From a virus, in IMG/VR virus record IMGVR_UViG_3300013131_000227, positions 1 through 25,445 of that record: DNA of 25,445 nt; one strand, 5' to 3'. Below, one piece after another: positions 1-12,926 of the stretch. Under the pieces are notes generated by a model that was given only the letters and a program-made list of their open reading frames with translations, was not told the origin of the DNA and did no database searches. Each line of letters begins with the position of its first letter. Within the stretch, counting starts at the first letter, position 1. A program made the position numbers and the translations under genes.

Positions 1-122
1 ATACCGATTATATCTTGTCTTGTTTCTAATATTAATGAGTCTCTATTTTTATCGTATTCGATATTATGCCAATAAATTCCGTCAAATTCTAGTAATATAA
101 TACCGTTAGATTTTTTTATATA
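1..122 (-). pseudogene. homing-endonuclease-like fragment (Vsr-like/EDxHD type), cut by window edge
   Basis: Directly after the TAG that ends the UvsX/intein fragment, the same minus-strand frame stays open for 40 codons to the window edge. It reads like the core of a Vsr-like nuclease: IILLEFDGIYWHN followed by DKNRD, giving the D, WH and D positions expected of the EDxHD homing endonucleases associated with fractured genes and split inteins. No ATG lies between the TAG and this core. The other two frames just upstream are closed by stops, so the N-terminal strand and first acidic residue of the fold are not visible. It may be a decayed nuclease, or a nuclease domain once continuous with the intein and now behind a nonsense codon. 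The C-terminal end is outside the window. Confidence 0.55.
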
Positions 123-125
123 CTA
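109..125 (-). repeat. 17-base sequence repeated exactly at 9855-9871
   Basis: On the minus strand this reads TAGTATATAAAAAAATC and includes the TAG stop of the UvsX fragment. The identical 17-mer occurs upstream of the gene at 9140-9847. It contains TATATAA, seen in several other leaders, so it may be a promoter-like element. Composition is mostly A/T, so chance is not excluded. Confidence 0.4.
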
Positions 126-1097
126 AATAGTTAATACTATGTCATCTTTAGCTAAGTTTTTGGCTTTTATCCATGAATTATCATCATGTATGTCACCTCC
201 AATATAAAATCTGTGTTCTTCAGAGCATTTTAGAATACTACCATCTTCAAATTCAACTTCAATTATTTTTTTATTAAATTCAAAAGTATCTTTGACTTCC
301 TTTTTACCACTTAATGTTTCTACAAAATCACCTATTTTTAAATCTTCTATATTAACGTATGACATTGAATCTTTATCTACAAGTACTTTATGACCAGGCG
401 TTAAACATCCTCCTGAACCAACCCAGGCTGCCATAAAATCTGTTGTTTTATATACGTGATTAGAATATACAAATGGTATTTTAACTTCAGCCATTCTTGT
501 CATTAAGATACGGAAAAGAGACTTAATTCTTTTCGCTCTTGTCATATCTTCTTTTTGGTTACCTTCTTCAGCATCAGTTAATTCTTTAATCGTACCTAAG
601 TTACCAATTGAATCTAAGAATACCATTACTTTAGGAATTTCCATTCCATTTCTCTGTGCATCAATAAGTTTACCAGTAAGATTTGTAGTAGAAGTTCTAA
701 AAGACTCAACTGTATTACATGGTTCGTACCATACTCTTGTTGTATCTAAACCAAACTGCTCCATTAATTTTTTATCTACTGCGTTTTCAGAGTCATACCA
801 GTAAATATAGTAACCCATTTTCTGTGCGTTTCTTGCAGCACACAGCATCACGAATGTTTTACCTACACCTGAAGGCCCCATTAATTCAACTGCTCTATTA
901 TTAGGTATACCACCGAAAACATTACCAGTCATTGCTAAGTTTAGTATATAACTACCGATATCAATATATTCTGTAATTTCACTAAATGTACTTACATCCA
1001 TTGTTGAACCAAGAGGTGCAACTTTTGATAGTTCTTGATTTAAATCTTCAAATGTAAAGACTTTTGTTGCCTTTGTTCTTTCAGCTCTTTTACTCAT
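123..1097 (-). CDS. uvsX: UvsX recombinase N-terminal part fused to intein N-terminal half
   Basis: UvsX is the RecA-like recombinase of T4-type phages; it forms filaments on single-stranded DNA for strand exchange and recombination-dependent replication. Residues 1-230 are UvsX: Walker A GPSGVGKT (74-81), Walker B MVFLDS (158-163), and MTRAKRIKSLFR, nearly identical to T4 UvsX. The extein stops at GSGG (227-230), just before the conserved (T/S)GP-Y segment of the DNA-binding loop region. Residue 231 is Cys and begins an intein N-terminal domain (CLTPGHKVLV, block A; CSEEH at 291-295, block B) that ends at residue 324. The stop is TAG. The remaining UvsX, about 120-150 residues, and an intein C-half must lie elsewhere if the protein is functional. 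The gene follows the polymerase C-half by 19 bases. Confidence 0.9.
   Translation of the reverse strand: MSKRAERTKATKVFTFEDLNQELSKVAPLGSTMDVSTFSEITEYIDIGSYILNLAMTGNVFGGIPNNRAVELMGPSGVGKTFVMLCAARNAQKMGYYIYWYDSENAVDKKLMEQFGLDTTRVWYEPCNTVESFRTSTTNLTGKLIDAQRNGMEIPKVMVFLDSIGNLGTIKELTDAEEGNQKEDMTRAKRIKSLFRILMTRMAEVKIPFVYSNHVYKTTDFMAAWVGSGGCLTPGHKVLVDKDSMSYVNIEDLKIGDFVETLSGKKEVKDTFEFNKKIIEVEFEDGSILKCSEEHRFYIGGDIHDDNSWIKAKNLAKDDIVLTI
126..407 (-). other. intein N-terminal splicing domain (94 residues) within UvsX
   Basis: The segment starts with the nucleophilic Cys (residue 231 of the ORF) and has the normal order of N-terminal Hint elements: block A (CLTPGHKVLV), a strand region around YVNIEDLKIGDFVETLSG, and block B (FEDGSILKCSEEHRFYI). 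Block B has CSEEH where the classical form is TxxH; I recall the phage split intein gp41-1 also having CSEEH there. It ends with DDIVLTI, a usual end of split-intein N-halves. No C-terminal splicing motifs (HN followed by Cys/Ser/Thr) follow before the window edge. Length and ending favour a trans-splicing N-half over a truncated cis intein, but the partner is not in view. Confidence 0.85.
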
Positions 1098-3323: not shown

Positions 3324-5117
3324 TTAACCGTCACAGCTTAAGCAATTTTCATCCATTGCTTTAGCAGCTATGTCTCCTCTAAGAACAGATTCTGTTCTCA
3401 TATAATACAGAGTTTTTATACCTTGTTTCCATGCCTCAAGGTGAACTAAGTTAATCCATTTAGGGTCAGCCTGTGCCGGAAAGGCTAAATTTAAAGAAAC
3501 AGACTGGTCGATGTACTGTTGTCTTATACCTGCTTGTTTAACTAATTCAAGTTGATTTATTTCTTTAAATGTTTTAAAAACATCTTTGAAAGGTACAAAT
3601 TCATCTGCAAAACCTTTAAAATCTTCTCTTTTTGTTAATTTACCATCATGGAAGCCCCATTCATCAAGCTCTTGTATGTCTTGAACTGAACCTCCATCTT
3701 CAAGTATTTTATCCCATACGACTTTATTATTAAGCTTCATTGTTGAGAAATATTGTTCTAATACAGGATTTTTTCTAATAAATGTTCCTTTAAGAGACTG
3801 TTCAGTCCATACATTAGCAGGAACAGGTTCAATACCAGCACTATAACCTCCTCCTAATTTAGAATTAGATACAGTAGGTGCAATTGCTCTTAAATGTGTA
3901 TTTCTCATTCCTGTACCAACACACCATAATGGTTCACCATATTCTTCAGCCATGTCTCGGCTAGCTTTTTCACTTTCAACTTGTAGCTTATTGAAAATCT
4001 CTCTTGTTTTGAACTGAGCCTGTAATCCTTCAAATGGTATACCTTTCATTTGTAAATATGTATGCCATCCTAATACACCTAAACCTAAAGCTCTTCCTTT
4101 TTCAGCAGAACGTACAGAGTTCTCAAATCCTCTCATGTATTTAGCTTTACTAATAAATTCTTCTAATACACCGTCTAAGAACCATGTTGCAGTATAAATA
4201 AGGTCAGTGTCTTTCCATTCATCGTATTTAGCTAAATTAAGAGAACTTAAACAACAAACAAATGAATGAGATTCATCAGTATGTAAAACGATTTCAGAAC
4301 ATATATTTGTCATGAAAACCTTTAAACCGTTATTTTTATATGCAGCAGGATTGTTTTTATTAACATTACCTCTGAACATAATATATGGTTCACCTGTTTT
4401 CTTTCTTTTCTTAAGAACTGCAGACCATCTTTTTCTAGCTTCAGCGTCTCCGGATTCAACCTTTCTCATGAATTTATCACTAACAATAACAGACTGGTGT
4501 AAATTTGGACATTGTCTTGAAACATCTCCTTTAGGTTCTCTAATTTCTAACCAATCCCAGAAATCATTATGTTCTATATTAATATTTACAGATGCTGCAC
4601 CTCTTCTTACTGCGCCTTGATTAGTTGCAAGAATAGTAGAATCATACATTTTACAGAATGGTACTACACCGTCTGAAGTACCGTTATTTTTAATCGGTGC
4701 ACCTGCTGGTCTAATTTGATTTATACCGATACCTACTCCTCCCCCGTGTTTTGCTAACAACATCATTTCTAAGTTTTTAGCACCAATATCTGCAATAGAA
4801 TCTGCAACATCAATTCCAAAACATGAAATTGGTAAACCTCTTTCTGTTCCAGTATTTGATAATACCGGGCTAGCTAAATTTAACCAACCTTTCCAGATAT
4901 AATCAAAGAACTTAGAAGCCATTGAAGGTTTATCTAGTCTTTTGGCAACACTTGTGGCAACTCTCCAATACGCATCTTTAGGTGTTTCACCTGCTAATAA
5001 ATATCCTCTAGATATTGTCTTTATATAAACATCCGTTAAAGCCCATTCAGGTAAGTCTACGCCTGCTTCCCATCCAAGTTCATCTAATTCGGCTTGAATT
5101 GTTTTATTTACTTTCAT
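3324..5117 (-). CDS. nrdA: ribonucleoside-diphosphate reductase class I, large subunit
   Basis: NrdA reduces ribonucleotides to deoxyribonucleotides for phage DNA synthesis. Visible active-site elements: Cys99 in LPISCFGI (first redox Cys), Asn271-Cys273-Glu275 in MTNICSEI (catalytic triad), the Cys288/289 region in FVCCLSSLNL (redox partner), Tyr571-Tyr572 in LYYMRT (radical transfer pair) and a C-terminal CLSC pair (592-595) that receives electrons from a thioredoxin or glutaredoxin. At 597 residues it is much shorter than the E. coli and T4 enzymes (about 755-760) because it lacks the N-terminal ATP-cone, so dATP feedback inhibition through that domain is not expected. It lies 14 bases after nrdB, in the same transcription unit. 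Confidence 0.95.
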   Translation of the reverse strand: MKVNKTIQAELDELGWEAGVDLPEWALTDVYIKTISRGYLLAGETPKDAYWRVATSVAKRLDKPSMASKFFDYIWKGWLNLASPVLSNTGTERGLPISCFGIDVADSIADIGAKNLEMMLLAKHGGGVGIGINQIRPAGAPIKNNGTSDGVVPFCKMYDSTILATNQGAVRRGAASVNINIEHNDFWDWLEIREPKGDVSRQCPNLHQSVIVSDKFMRKVESGDAEARKRWSAVLKKRKKTGEPYIMFRGNVNKNNPAAYKNNGLKVFMTNICSEIVLHTDESHSFVCCLSSLNLAKYDEWKDTDLIYTATWFLDGVLEEFISKAKYMRGFENSVRSAEKGRALGLGVLGWHTYLQMKGIPFEGLQAQFKTREIFNKLQVESEKASRDMAEEYGEPLWCVGTGMRNTHLRAIAPTVSNSKLGGGYSAGIEPVPANVWTEQSLKGTFIRKNPVLEQYFSTMKLNNKVVWDKILEDGGSVQDIQELDEWGFHDGKLTKREDFKGFADEFVPFKDVFKTFKEINQLELVKQAGIRQQYIDQSVSLNLAFPAQADPKWINLVHLEAWKQGIKTLYYMRTESVLRGDIAAKAMDENCLSCDG

Positions 5118-5131
5118 CTTTCTTTATTTTA

Positions 5132-6127
5132 TTAAAATATATCTTCCCAATCTTCTTCAACACCTTGTTTAGCATAATCAGTAGGTCTAACACTGAAAAA
5201 ATCGGTATGTGTTACACCTCCAGTCAAATGATAAAACCAGTCTAATTTATCAGCTAACTCTTTAGAATAGTCAAATATTCCTTCATATCCTAATTCGTTT
5301 AATTTTTCATTTGCTCTTCTTTTAATAAATGCTTTAAGTTCATCAGCTTTTAAATTTTCTAAATCACCCATTTCAAACATTTTATCAATAAAGTTAAGCT
5401 CCATTTCTACCATTAATCTTGCAGCTTCTTCTACATCATTTTGTACTTGGTCTTTAAGTTCAGGGTATTCCTCACACATATGTCTAAACAATCTACAACC
5501 CATTTTAGTATGAAGAGATTCGTCTCTAACAGACCATTTCATCTGTTGACCAATTCCTTTAAGTAAGTTTCTTAATTGAAAAGAATATAATACTGCAAAT
5601 GAACTGTATAAACTAACACCTTCTGCAAAAGCACTAAATATTGCTAAGCTTCTAGCAACATCTCTTCTTGCATGAGCAGATTTTCGTAAGTCTTTATGTG
5701 TATATTCATTTTTAGTTTCAGTTAATAACTCAAATTTACTAGCAATAGTAGGCTCATGAAGAAAGGCTTCAAAATCAGTAAGACCTAATGTTTCGTTTAA
5801 ATATGAATATGCTTTAGAGTGTATTGTTTCGAAATAACCAAAAGCTATAGCCATTTCTTTAATTTCATGTTTAGGGAACCACTTAGTAACAGAAGTAGTC
5901 CAATAATCACTTACAGCACATTCTGTTTGTGCAAAACCTAATAATATATTACCTACTAAATTTCTCTCATGTGGTAATAAATTTTCATTCCAGTCCTTTA
6001 CGTCTGAACCCATTGGAATCTCAGTATGTAACCAATGTGCTTGTGATTGAGGCAACCAAGCATTCAGGTCATATTCAGGGTATTCAAATGGTTTGTATGC
6101 AATTCTTTCTTCAAAAAGTCCCGCCAT
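5132..6127 (-). CDS. nrdB: ribonucleoside-diphosphate reductase class I, small subunit
   Basis: NrdB carries the dimetal cofactor and radical used by NrdA. Metal ligands visible: Glu100 and His103 in FETIHSKAYSY, Glu169 in FAEGVSLY, Glu203 and His206 in RDESLH. Tyr107, four residues after His103, fits the radical tyrosine (E. coli Tyr122). Counting back by the E. coli spacing (Asp84 to Glu115, 31 residues), the first ligand position is Glu69 in QTECAVSD, a Glu in place of the usual Asp. Length (331) is normal. The C-terminal tail (EEDWEDIF) would dock on NrdA. The ATG is preceded by AAGGAA, one of the few Shine-Dalgarno-like sequences here. The dUTPase-like gene lies 30 bases upstream. Confidence 0.95.
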   Translation of the reverse strand: MAGLFEERIAYKPFEYPEYDLNAWLPQSQAHWLHTEIPMGSDVKDWNENLLPHERNLVGNILLGFAQTECAVSDYWTTSVTKWFPKHEIKEMAIAFGYFETIHSKAYSYLNETLGLTDFEAFLHEPTIASKFELLTETKNEYTHKDLRKSAHARRDVARSLAIFSAFAEGVSLYSSFAVLYSFQLRNLLKGIGQQMKWSVRDESLHTKMGCRLFRHMCEEYPELKDQVQNDVEEAARLMVEMELNFIDKMFEMGDLENLKADELKAFIKRRANEKLNELGYEGIFDYSKELADKLDWFYHLTGGVTHTDFFSVRPTDYAKQGVEEDWEDIF

Positions 6128-6157
6128 TTCCTTGTTATTTTTTTTGTTTAACGGTTA

Positions 6158-6637
6158 TTAATAACCTCGTTTCTGTCTATCCTTGTTTTCTGCTGCCTTT
6201 GCAAAATAGTAATTAAATACTGTCTTTGAATCTAAACCTATAGATGCTGCAAAGTTAATAAAAAAGTGAAGACCGTCAATCCATTCCATAAATAATTCCT
6301 TTTTATCATTTTCAGAAAGGTCAGAAATCTTCATATTTTCAAATTTCTTGTGGTCTTTTTTCCAGTATTTCCATACTGCATTACCACTACCATCTTTGAT
6401 TCCGCCTAAAGCGTCAATCATTTCATGCAATTCATCTTGTAATGCATGTTTATTAACTAACCAAAAATCTTTAATTTCAGAAATAGTCATATCTTCGAAT
6501 TTAATTCCATATGTCTTTTCTTGCATTTCTTTTTGGTGTTCCATAATTTGACCAAGTGTATCTTCACCTGATTCAATTGAAGATTTATGATAATCTACGA
6601 TTTCTAAATCTTTACATTCATTGTCTATATTTGCCAT
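6158..6637 (-). CDS. all-alpha NTP pyrophosphatase, dimeric dUTPase-like
   Basis: The product (159 residues from the ATG at 6637) has the helical signature of the dimeric dUTPase/MazG-like superfamily: DELHEMIDALGG (acidic Glu69/Glu72), a second acidic helix FMEWIDGLHFF (Glu118, Asp121) and a C-terminal NKDRQKRGY, typical of the nucleotide-binding end of dimeric dUTPases. It would hydrolyse dUTP (or dCTP) to the monophosphate, supplying dTMP precursors and keeping uracil out of DNA. It precedes nrdB and nrdA, forming a nucleotide-metabolism group. An upstream in-frame ATG at 6679 would add 14 hydrophobic residues lying over the leader hairpin; I prefer the internal start because the extension does not resemble the family. 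Confidence 0.72.
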   Translation of the reverse strand: MANIDNECKDLEIVDYHKSSIESGEDTLGQIMEHQKEMQEKTYGIKFEDMTISEIKDFWLVNKHALQDELHEMIDALGGIKDGSGNAVWKYWKKDHKKFENMKISDLSENDKKELFMEWIDGLHFFINFAASIGLDSKTVFNYYFAKAAENKDRQKRGY

Positions 6638-9880: not shown

Positions 9881-10969
9881 TTATAAGTTTCTTTCTAGAA
9901 ATTTAAGACTTGATATACTAACCGCATCTGGCACAAAATCCTTTGTTATATTAATTCTATTATTTCTAAATACTATATAAGTAATACCATTAACTATTTC
10001 GTTTACAGCTACTTGCATATCATTTTGAAAATCATCTGGGTTTCTAACATATTTTATTCTTCTGAGTTCAGTTAACATATACAAATGGTCTTTGTCATAT
10101 GCTTTTTCAATATGTATAGTATTTCCAGAAATATCGAGTATTGGTTTAATACTTAGTTCTATAGGCTCCATATTCGGACCTCTTAGAATTATATTTGTAT
10201 AACCTTCGATGTCAATATTTTGTTCACACATTTCTCTGTAAAAACTATCAAATAATATTAAATCAGATTTACACATTTCACCTGACATTATTTTAGGCCT
10301 AAGCGTTAATATCTCATCTACTTTATCTGCAACGCTTTGATTAAATTCTGAGTGAAAATCAAATTTGTTTTTTCTTCTGCGTCCTGTAAGTTTATATAGA
10401 ACATTCATAGTATCTGATACTATTTCCCAGAATTCGAAGTTTGATACCTTTGATTTTACACCTGTTAATATACTTGCGTTACCTTGTCTACTCCAGTCTT
10501 TTACTTCATAAAAAGTGCCATTAATATTAACGTCATAACTATCTTTTCCGCCTTGTATATTTGCATTCTCAATTAACCATGCAATAAATATTTCAGCTTT
10601 ACCTGTACCTCTTGATTGAATATCATACATTTTACCAATAGCTGTCGACCTGTCATGATACAGTTCAGGTATTAAATCATAAGGTGTTTTATAAGTATAC
10701 AGATAACTAACAATGTCTCTACATTCTTCTTTTGTTAGTTTTGAAAAGTAAAGTATTACTTCATCTGCTAATAAACCATTAGGTATGTTTTTAGCAAAAG
10801 ACTTATATTTTTCTAATTTGTTCTGAATTTCAAGTTCATCGATTAAATTTGAATTACCATGTAATATACCAGGGCATTCAGATTCTATTGAAAAGTTTGT
10901 AATTTTCTTTTTTATTGGCCCCTTCTTTTTAATAGGGGTTATGACCCTACTCTTTTCTTTTGTTAGCAT
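9881..10969 (-). CDS. putative PD-(D/E)XK-fold nuclease-like protein
   Basis: The 362-residue protein has a lysine-rich N-terminus (residues 3-22) and, in the first half, the arrangement of a PD-(D/E)XK nuclease core: Glu126 in a helix (GKAEIFIAWL), Asp146 on a strand (SYDVNI), and Glu155-Val-Lys157 on the next strand (GTFYEVKDW). The last two form a plausible D...ExK metal site. The second half has no motif I recognise. It lies between the nucleotidyltransferase fusion and a capsid-targeting-like protein, so a role in DNA processing or packaging-associated nucleic-acid repair is possible. The call rests on motif spacing alone; it could be a non-enzymatic protein with a similar strand pattern. 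Confidence 0.45.
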   Translation of the reverse strand: MLTKEKSRVITPIKKKGPIKKKITNFSIESECPGILHGNSNLIDELEIQNKLEKYKSFAKNIPNGLLADEVILYFSKLTKEECRDIVSYLYTYKTPYDLIPELYHDRSTAIGKMYDIQSRGTGKAEIFIAWLIENANIQGGKDSYDVNINGTFYEVKDWSRQGNASILTGVKSKVSNFEFWEIVSDTMNVLYKLTGRRRKNKFDFHSEFNQSVADKVDEILTLRPKIMSGEMCKSDLILFDSFYREMCEQNIDIEGYTNIILRGPNMEPIELSIKPILDISGNTIHIEKAYDKDHLYMLTELRRIKYVRNPDDFQNDMQVAVNEIVNGITYIVFRNNRINITKDFVPDAVSISSLKFLERNL

Positions 10970-10985
10970 TTAATTTAATTTAAAA

Positions 10986-12926
10986 TTATTGATTATTCTC
11001 TTGGTTTTCTGGATTCTCAATTTCCTCAGATTGGATGTCTTCTTGTGTACTATCAGATTCTGATATTAAAATTGTTTTAGGTTCAACATTTCTTTCAGTA
11101 ACTTTTAAGTCTACTGTCTCAGAAATAGGATTAATTAAAACTTTTAATTCATCAAAAAATGAATGTATTGAATTAGGAGTCATTGATTTATACGTGTCAT
11201 AGTCTTCAATTGCTAAAGCATTTCTAACTTTAGTTGCACTAATATCTTCGTCATCTCTTTCTATTTCATACATACCGAAGTCTTCTAAGCAATTTAACTC
11301 TTCGGAATATTTGTCAACTTGATATTGATAACTTTTTAATCTGTCAGTACCTGAGCCCCATAAAACAGGTTCATATGCAGGTCTAAGAGAATTAAATATT
11401 GTATCAATTGCAGCAGTCGGTATAATTCTCATTGCTTCTAAGAACTGGAATTCTTTTTTAAGTTCACCAAACATTCTTATCTGCGTATCTGCATCTATCG
11501 GATTTTTTGTAAGATTAGTCTTTTTACCTCTAACTACAAACAATACTATAGGATGCCCATTTTTCTCATGTATTTGTTGTAAAACTTTAATATGACCTAA
11601 AGTGAAAGGCTGGAACCTTCCTACTATAATATTTACCTTTTTTAAACCTTGTTCACGAGTTTCTAAATTTAAACCACTAAAAATTTCTTGTTCAAACATT
11701 GATTTTTCACCTTTATAAACATTAGACTTAAGGAAAGTTTCGAAATCTAGCGCCATATCATTCTTAACTTCCTCTCTTATTGTTTTCTCTATTCTATCAA
11801 CGATATCATTAATTGAATTAATAATAACGTCTGTTAATATATCAGTTGACGCTTTTCTGTATTTTCTAAAAGAACTTAGCATTATTTTAAATAAATTTGA
11901 CATATATTCATTTTTTATAATGTCTTTCGTTCTTGCATTTCTGATAAATTTAGTATTTACTTCGAATTCTGGTTTTTTAGCAAAATCAGGAGTATCAAAG
12001 TTGATTCCTATATATTTATGACCATTTCTTTCTACATAATCGTTAAATATTATTGATATTAACTCAACGTATCTTGCTTCTTGGTCATCTTCACTCAAAT
12101 ATACTTTACTTAAATTATATTCTTCCATGAATTCTACAATGTCTAGCATTGCAATTTGATACATGTCATTAGACTTTCTTTCAGGTTTGCTCTTAAGTTC
12201 TCTTCTTGTGTATTGGAATACTGGGTCGACAACTTTAGCAGAGAATGTTTCTGATTCACCGTCTTTTATAAATTTAAAGATAATTCCTTCTATGTCTTTA
12301 TCTAAACTATTAGATAAGGCTGTTTTAGTAAGTGATGGATTCAAAATTGATATAATATATCTTGTAAATGAGTTAGACTTAAATAGAGATACTAAATCCG
12401 TCTCATTTGTTTCTAAAAAATCTTTAATTTTACCCTTTTGTTCAGATGTAAGATAACCTGAAAAAATTATAGGTGGATTTTCTACGCTTAATATTTCAGC
12501 CCATTTTTTAAGTATTTTAGGGTCATTAATAACTTTAATGACTCTTCCTGACTCATTTCTAATTGAAATATCAGTAAGAATTAAATGATTCTTAGGAAGT
12601 CTATCATATACTATTTTAATAGGAGAAAGCGAAGGAAAATATTGGAAACCAAATGTCCAATTATCTGGTATCATATCAATTACCTCGGGATGTAAATTTT
12701 CAATATGGTCAATTGCTTTCTCATAAAATTTCATCAGAGCTCTATCGATAAAACTAATAGGATTTCCGACACCTTTATAATAAACGATATCGTCACTGAA
12801 CTGCTTTTGAAAAAGAAATCTAGAACCGTCTATCTGTTCAGCTACTATCACATAATCATTAAAAAGGCCATCTATGAATTCTCTTCCTTTTTCTTTATAA
12901 ATACTATTTAATGTAAGTAATCCCAT
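10986..12926 (-). CDS. degenerate ligase-type nucleotidyltransferase fused to NMN adenylyltransferase-like domain
   Basis: Residues 1-240 resemble a ligase-superfamily nucleotidyltransferase: motif I position VAEQIDGSR (29-36), motif III position TFGFQYF (91-97), motif IV IEGIIFKF (212-219) and motif V FSAKVVDP (228-235). The motif I lysine that would carry AMP is Gln31, and the motif III acidic residue is Gln95, so covalent adenylylation is unlikely. A helical linker leads to residues 430-600, a nucleotidylyltransferase fold of the NadM/NMNAT kind with VGRFQPFTLGH (435-445) and C-terminal ISATKVR (562-568), both intact. That half would transfer AMP or CMP, for example in NAD synthesis. The last 45 residues are acidic and probably disordered. 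It starts 9 bases after the next nucleotidyltransferase gene. RNA repair or NAD salvage are the likely contexts. Confidence 0.75.
   Translation of the reverse strand: MGLLTLNSIYKEKGREFIDGLFNDYVIVAEQIDGSRFLFQKQFSDDIVYYKGVGNPISFIDRALMKFYEKAIDHIENLHPEVIDMIPDNWTFGFQYFPSLSPIKIVYDRLPKNHLILTDISIRNESGRVIKVINDPKILKKWAEILSVENPPIIFSGYLTSEQKGKIKDFLETNETDLVSLFKSNSFTRYIISILNPSLTKTALSNSLDKDIEGIIFKFIKDGESETFSAKVVDPVFQYTRRELKSKPERKSNDMYQIAMLDIVEFMEEYNLSKVYLSEDDQEARYVELISIIFNDYVERNGHKYIGINFDTPDFAKKPEFEVNTKFIRNARTKDIIKNEYMSNLFKIMLSSFRKYRKASTDILTDVIINSINDIVDRIEKTIREEVKNDMALDFETFLKSNVYKGEKSMFEQEIFSGLNLETREQGLKKVNIIVGRFQPFTLGHIKVLQQIHEKNGHPIVLFVVRGKKTNLTKNPIDADTQIRMFGELKKEFQFLEAMRIIPTAAIDTIFNSLRPAYEPVLWGSGTDRLKSYQYQVDKYSEELNCLEDFGMYEIERDDEDISATKVRNALAIEDYDTYKSMTPNSIHSFFDELKVLINPISETVDLKVTERNVEPKTILISESDSTQEDIQSEEIENPENQENNQ

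What the first reader, a model, noticed from the sequence alone, without database searches (positions are those of the whole stretch)
1..407. UvsX split by an intein N-half: a possible fractured gene with a trans-splicing intein
Seen: UvsX coding runs to GSGG in the DNA-binding loop region, then Cys starts a canonical intein N-terminal domain of 94 residues that ends at a stop. Known: fractured genes with split inteins and an adjacent Vsr-like nuclease have been described from phage metagenomes for gp41, Nrd and IMPDH genes. A UvsX example in a Bacteroidetes phage, inserted in a recombinase active region, would be an addition. Inference: the rest of UvsX with an intein C-half lies elsewhere, probably close beyond position 1.
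Basis: partly seen in the sequence, partly recalled or inferred. Interest (0 to 1): 0.85.

Follow-up and report, generated by a model that had tools for sequence, protein, structure and literature searches.

The report
UvsX recombinase split by an intein
A phage recombinase gene stops halfway and carries the front half of a self-splicing protein element; relatives that carry both halves show that the recombinase is probably made as two proteins and stitched together afterwards, a real and widespread arrangement that is a new example of a known type, with this copy's second half lying just off the end of the sequenced fragment.

Summary
On the minus strand, 1097-408 encodes UvsX residues 1-230 (..WVGSGG). 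407-126 is a 94-aa intein N-half, closed by TAG at 125-123. An intein-free relative, 90% identical in DNA next to the site, reads WVGSGG|SGREYGA, so the insertion point is exact. IMG/VR and GenBank phages hold over 40 distinct uvsX loci with an intein split at this same codon. The first ORF ends in a 91-115 aa IntN (mostly 91-98), and a later ORF starts with IntC ending HN|(T/S)G. The spacer holds a GIY-YIG nuclease (T4-like phages), an EDxHD-like nuclease (this lineage) or a decayed or missing one. New here: the 120 nt after the TAG are the truncated tail of that nuclease. In all nine relatives with this nuclease the IntC ORF starts inside the nuclease tail, in the +1 frame. The missing IntC should therefore begin about 64 nt past position 1, and a TAG sequencing error would not restore a cis intein. 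The partner half and splicing were not observed; the fragment ends first. Verdict: new member of a known kind (fractured gene). A relative with uvsX in three pieces is the more unusual by-product.

The parts
408..1097 (-). N-extein: UvsX residues 1-230 with Walker A (GPSGVGKT) and Walker B (VMVFLDS), ending ..WVGSGG
   Evidence: phrog_97 E 1.9e-46; Pfam RecA 41 bits over cut-off; 50-57% identical to many intact phage UvsX
126..407 (-). Intein N-half (IntN), 94 aa, Cys1, block-B-like CSEEH
   Evidence: TIGR01445 1-83/83, 24.0 bits; 6qaz gp41-1 intein 1.5e-13 by profile; 49% to L042 IntN; Cys1 and His invariant in 30 relatives
123..125 (-). TAG stop ending the N-half at the same place as in split relatives (91-115 aa, mostly 91-98; here 94)
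3..122 (-). Remnant of the EDxHD-like nuclease gene: in frame after the stop, no ATG/GTG/TTG, equals residues 257-296 of the 334-aa L042 nuclease; upstream part deleted
   Evidence: 55% identity, E 4e-15; alignment A6; the other two frames are interrupted by several stops each
407..408 (-). Intein insertion point, GG|C; the empty allele in L003 reads GG|SGREYGA
   Evidence: L003:119-121 junction, about 90% DNA identity over the flanking 120 nt

Best explanation
The uvsX gene is a fractured gene carrying a naturally split intein at GG|(S/T)G, the end of the RecA/UvsX loop-2 region. ORF 1 makes UvsX(1-230)-IntN. A second ORF, whose ATG is predicted about 64 nt beyond window position 1 in the +1 frame of the nuclease remnant, makes IntC(..HN)-UvsX(C). 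The halves associate and splice in trans (Cys1 of IntN, block-B His, terminal Asn of IntC, Ser/Thr +1), giving an uninterrupted UvsX. The element once carried a free-standing EDxHD-like homing endonuclease between the halves. In this phage most of that gene is deleted and only its 3' part remains, the part in which the IntC gene starts in relatives. Shown: N-half, stop, nuclease remnant, exact site, complete two-piece loci in relatives. Inferred: position of IntC here, splicing, homing.
For: IntN homology. Empty site in a close relative. Complete fractured loci at the identical site: L042 = UvsX-IntN 318 aa, nuclease 334 aa, IntC-UvsX 219 aa; Prevotella phage Lak-B5; Yersinia TG1, Proteus Pm5461, Salmonella CF-SP2 and Escherichia HY03, with a GIY-YIG-type or unclassified ORF between the halves. 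Survey of 44 split site-B loci with IntN 91-115 aa, nearly all 91-98. The window IntN falls with the EDxHD-bearing inteins (15-row set, SH-aLRT 98), consistent with its nuclease remnant. IntC is +1 to the nuclease frame and overlaps it by 53-62 nt in 9 of 9 loci. TAG is not recoded: no other gene uses in-frame TAG, and there are no tRNAs in the window. The same kind of nuclease loss is seen independently in L057, where residues 73-128 are left.
Against: The IntC half of this phage has not been seen: the record ends first, and a scan of viral contigs for the end sequence found nothing. IntN scores just miss the single-sequence curated cut-offs. Splicing is untested. The TAG/nuclease junction lies 122 nt from a contig end, where assembly is least reliable.
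Confidence: 0.88

Rival explanations
1. Ordinary cis-splicing intein whose reading frame is broken by a sequencing or assembly error at the TAG, or read through because TAG is recoded.
For: The frame is open after the TAG; TAG is otherwise unused as a stop here; cis forms exist at this site (L100, L106, L158); Lak phages that carry the intein recode TAG.
Against: What follows the TAG is nuclease tail, not IntC, and in 9 of 9 relatives IntC is +1 to that frame, so read-through would run into the nuclease stop. No other gene has an in-frame TAG and no suppressor tRNA is present. IntN length at the stop equals that of split relatives.
Confidence: 0.05
2. Dead element: the deletion that removed the nuclease also removed or damaged IntC, leaving a non-functional truncated uvsX in this phage.
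For: The nuclease is truncated and has lost two putative catalytic residues; the C-half is not in the record.
Against: IntN is intact, with all family-invariant residues. The retained tail is exactly the part next to the IntC start in relatives. The upstream genes of the cluster are open. uvsX is expected to be needed by such phages (general knowledge of recombination-dependent replication).
Confidence: 0.05
3. Assembly chimera: IntN is real, but the last 122 nt were mis-joined from another part of the same locus, so the nuclease is in fact complete.
For: The junction is within 122 nt of the contig end; related phages with and without the element exist in the collections.
Against: Reading frame, composition and motif are continuous. 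A natural nuclease deletion at the same locus is seen in L057. Even if true, the split-intein reading is unchanged.
Confidence: 0.1

Closest known systems
Fractured genes with split inteins and a free-standing homing endonuclease (Dassa et al. 2009, doi 10.1093/nar/gkp095; paper not held, content from memory and citing papers)
   Same: Enzyme gene interrupted by IntN-stop / nuclease / IntC-gene; essential phage replication gene; canonical split position
   Different: Host gene is uvsX; the nuclease between the halves is largely deleted; in relatives IntC starts inside the nuclease gene
gp41-1 split intein (PDB 6qaz, 6riz)
   Same: Closest solved structure to the IntN (profile E 1.5e-13); same kind of phage split intein
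   Different: Inserted in helicase gp41, not UvsX; low sequence identity
Split uvsX of T4-like phages (e.g. Escherichia phage HY03, Proteus Pm5461, Yersinia TG1, Salmonella CF-SP2), deposited as two recombinase or hypothetical genes
   Same: Same insertion codon GG|C..HN|TG, IntN of 96 aa in the four read here, ORF between the halves, IntC ORF downstream
   Different: The ORF between the halves, where recognised, is GIY-YIG-type; different intein clade; matches to the window protein are only 31-35% identical; records do not name the intein
VidaL UvsX-2 split intein (from memory, Lake Vida metagenome, Neugebauer et al. 2017; not verifiable here)
   Same: Split intein in a phage UvsX
   Different: Remembered as atypically split with a very short IntN, probably at another site

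Membership tests
Intein | Nucleophile at position 1 and block-B His in a Hint-type N-terminal domain | tested here: met
   C231 and H295 invariant in 30 relatives; TIGR01445 covers 1-83/83 at 24.0 bits, 0.5 below cut-off; 6qaz 1.5e-13
Intein | C-terminal block ending His-Asn followed by Cys/Ser/Thr +1 | not testable with these tools
   Beyond the record in this phage. Met in relatives (..VINHN|TG; TIGR01443 above cut-off in L042); the empty-site allele gives Ser +1
Fractured gene with split intein | N-extein + IntN ORF closed by a stop at the canonical split position | tested here: met
   324-aa ORF, IntN 94 aa, TAG
Fractured gene with split intein | Free-standing nuclease gene between the halves | tested here: inconclusive
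   Only a 40-codon remnant, in frame after the stop, without start codon; intact in L042, L089, L094-L096, L099, L101
Fractured gene with split intein | IntC + C-extein as a separate ORF | not testable with these tools
   Record ends at position 1; present in all complete split relatives
EDxHD / Vsr-like homing endonuclease | Conserved acidic catalytic set with DG.YWH motif and a Vsr-type (PD-(D/E)XK) fold | tested here: inconclusive
   Invariant E218, D255, E268, D270, W274, H275 in 8 relatives; the window keeps E268-H275 only. Foldseek gave only weak hits, mostly to PD-(D/E)XK-type and other nucleases, E >= 0.11, none to Vsr in the list shown; no PDB sequence hit
UvsX recombinase | RecA-core with Walker A/B and UvsX-specific sequence | tested here: met
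   phrog_97 1.9e-46; UvsX structures 7z3m, 9gbg and 3io5 among the top by profile and fold

The most novel reading that the evidence does not exclude
The split intein in uvsX has outlived its nuclease and is kept as a stable two-gene assembly step for the phage's own recombinase. The IntC gene is nested out of frame inside the nuclease tail, so loss of the nuclease cannot restore a cis form and the split becomes irreversible. In one related phage the process has gone further, so that UvsX is assembled from three polypeptides by two split inteins.
Probability: 0.25. Interest if true: 0.75.

Novelty: new member of a known kind. Interest (0 to 1): 0.55.

Why it matters
UvsX is the strand-exchange enzyme that phages use for double-strand-break repair, the same step by which homing elements copy themselves. 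A split intein that sits in uvsX, at its DNA-binding region, must be spliced before its own homing route works. The survey shows one insertion codon occupied across T4-like and Bacteroidetes-type phages by cis inteins, split inteins with different nuclease families, and split inteins whose nuclease has decayed: a ready series for studying how inteins become split and then fixed. It also means that 25 deposited phage records matched by the Proteus-phage IntN, among them E. coli phages of laboratory-friendly genera, carry a split recombinase whose annotations, where read, do not name an intein, and it offers a source of new split inteins for protein ligation.

Tried and rejected
TAG reassignment (code 15): rejected, only one in-frame TAG in the genes of the record, no tRNA. 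Finding the continuation: an exact 30-mer of the window end in IMG/VR gave no match, the UvsX query in GTDB genomes gave none, and the C-half query found only the intein-free relative above 42% identity. Using the window's tblastn coverage of T4-like phages as it stood: a hit without an intein (Vibrio phage henriette, L180) also aligned past residue 230, so IntN was searched alone, giving 25 and 30 GenBank records. Fold search of the window model: RecA structures fill the list, so it adds nothing on the intein. Fold search of the nuclease: weak hits only, Vsr membership left open. Rfam on the window end: nothing above a gathering threshold. Literature: no held paper that I found describes an intein in uvsX; Dassa 2009 is not held.

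Full report
What is there. The window is the entire 25,445-base viral record. All main genes run on the minus strand. ORF 1097..123 encodes 324 aa. Residues 1-230 are UvsX by PHROG and Pfam. From Cys231 the protein is an intein N-terminal region of 94 aa that ends at TAG (125-123). Single-sequence intein model scores fall just below the curated cut-offs (TIGR01445 24.0 vs 24.5; Pfam 29.3 vs 35.8). A 30-sequence profile reaches the solved gp41-1 intein at 1.5e-13, starting exactly at Cys1. AlphaFold gives the 324-aa chain a mean pLDDT of 85, with pLDDT under 50 in a segment only at 229-231, the junction.

The insertion point. L003 (IMGVR_UViG_3300033571_026470) is about 90% identical in DNA over the 120 nt next to the site and reads WVGSGG|SGREYGASIILM without an intein, followed by the rest of UvsX, a 99-aa protein and a DnaB-like helicase. 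So the intein lies between Gly230 and a residue that is Ser in the relative and would be the +1 nucleophile. Aligned to solved UvsX proteins, this is the GG(S/T)G at the end of the loop-2 region (loop assignment from general RecA knowledge).

Complete relatives. L042 (IMGVR_UViG_3300009149_000300) has three ORFs: UvsX-IntN (3929-4885), a 334-aa nuclease (4929-5933) and IntC-UvsX(C) (5881-6540, MELKK..VINHN|TGPEYAAS). Prevotella phage Lak-B5 has the same order in its own code 15. Scans with IntN and IntC alignments and a frame-by-frame check gave 44 split loci at this codon after removing obvious duplicates: 20 with a GIY-YIG-type spacer, 8 with the EDxHD-like nuclease, 10 with no nuclease, and the rest with other or degraded spacers. 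Five loci have a cis intein. Counts are lower bounds set by the search patterns, and the spacer labels rest on similarity to four reference nucleases. Cultured T4-like phages belong here too: Yersinia TG1, Proteus Pm5461, Salmonella CF-SP2 and Escherichia HY03 each have UvsX-IntN, another ORF, and IntC-UvsX(C). Their records call the pieces recombinase, uvsX_1/uvsX_2 or hypothetical. 25 GenBank records match the Proteus IntN.

What follows the stop. The frame after the TAG is open to the contig end and encodes 40 residues that match nuclease residues 257-296 of L042 at 55%, E 4e-15. The two other frames are interrupted by several stops. In the nuclease family the invariant residues include E218, H234, D255, E268, D270, W274 and H275. 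The window keeps only those from E268 on, so the nuclease as sequenced lacks E218 and D255 and has no start codon. I read this as a deletion of the nuclease's first ~256 codons. A parallel case is L057, where only residues 73-128 remain between the same two intein halves.

Why it should work in trans. In all nine loci with this nuclease, IntC begins inside the nuclease gene, in the +1 frame, overlapping its end by 53-62 nt. In the window the nuclease tail is in the same frame as IntN. Unless an indel lies in the missing 64 nt, IntC is therefore out of frame with IntN, and reading through or correcting the TAG would give a truncated dead end, not a cis intein. TAG is not recoded: 24 of 26 genes end in TAA, no other gene contains an in-frame TAG, and no tRNA is present. 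IntN length at the stop (94) is that of split relatives. The window's IntN falls with the inteins that carry the EDxHD-like nuclease (SH-aLRT 98), as its remnant predicts; its exact place within that set is unsure.

Mechanism. Two polypeptides, UvsX(1-230)-IntN and IntC-UvsX(C), associate and splice to full UvsX. The N-half alone has both Walker motifs but lacks everything after loop 2, so an unspliced half should be inactive (inference). The nuclease once made the element mobile; here it is decayed, and the 3' tail is probably kept because the IntC start lies in it (inference). None of the splicing or homing steps was tested.

Novelty. Fractured genes with split inteins and a free-standing nuclease are known. 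I could not read the founding paper (not held), and no held paper that I found describes an intein in uvsX. From memory a metagenomic UvsX split intein (VidaL UvsX-2) has been used as a tool, so UvsX as a host is probably not wholly new. I call this a new member of a known kind. The by-product that goes further is L057: UvsX in three ORFs, the middle one an IntC, 13 extein residues and an IntN, together with split inteins in its helicase and gp46-like genes.

Noticed in passing
L057:4092-6543 (IMGVR_UViG_3300036670_000250): UvsX encoded in three ORFs with two different split inteins: UvsX(1-208)-IntN-a; IntC-a + 13 extein residues TQDLFSKQVGGGG + IntN-b; IntC-b-UvsX(C). A natural three-piece trans-spliced protein if both inteins work.
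   Followed up: partly
L057:6862-8804 and 10335-12478: Same phage: the DnaB-like helicase and the gp46/SbcC-like gene are also split, both at Walker A (GEQNVGK|C..SHN|SIWLAN and GGNGAGK|C..SHN|STLAKV), with short IntN pieces (about 35 and 29 aa) and long IntC pieces. Four split inteins in one gene cluster.
   Followed up: partly
L102:5543-6411 and L115:4706-6396: Two inteins in one uvsX: the upstream site (after NHTY) split, the GG|(T/S)G site in cis form. The upstream-site inteins group together (SH-aLRT 93).
   Followed up: partly
L135:7418-7622: A group I intron (RF00028, 103.8 bits) lies in uvsX directly after the IntC junction (HN|TGK), so this gene carries a split intein, a nuclease and an intron.
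   Followed up: partly
L042, L089, L094-L096, L099, L101, L088, L005: The IntC ORF always starts inside the 3' end of the nuclease gene in the +1 frame (53-62 nt overlap), a nested-gene arrangement that links the two.
   Followed up: yes
window 8218-6806 and 2268-1117 (minus): Family B DNA polymerase in two ORFs separated by about 4.5 kb of other genes (ribonucleotide-reductase-like genes among them); no intein halves at the break, so it resembles a split polymerase of the gp43A/gp43B kind.
   Followed up: partly
L003:1-679: Closest relative lacks the intein, so presence is variable between phages about 90% identical at this locus; that contig also begins 120 nt before the insertion site.
   Followed up: yes
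L057:5698-5865: Fragment of the EDxHD-like nuclease (residues 73-128) left between IntN-b and IntC-b, an independent case of nuclease loss at the same site.
   Followed up: yes
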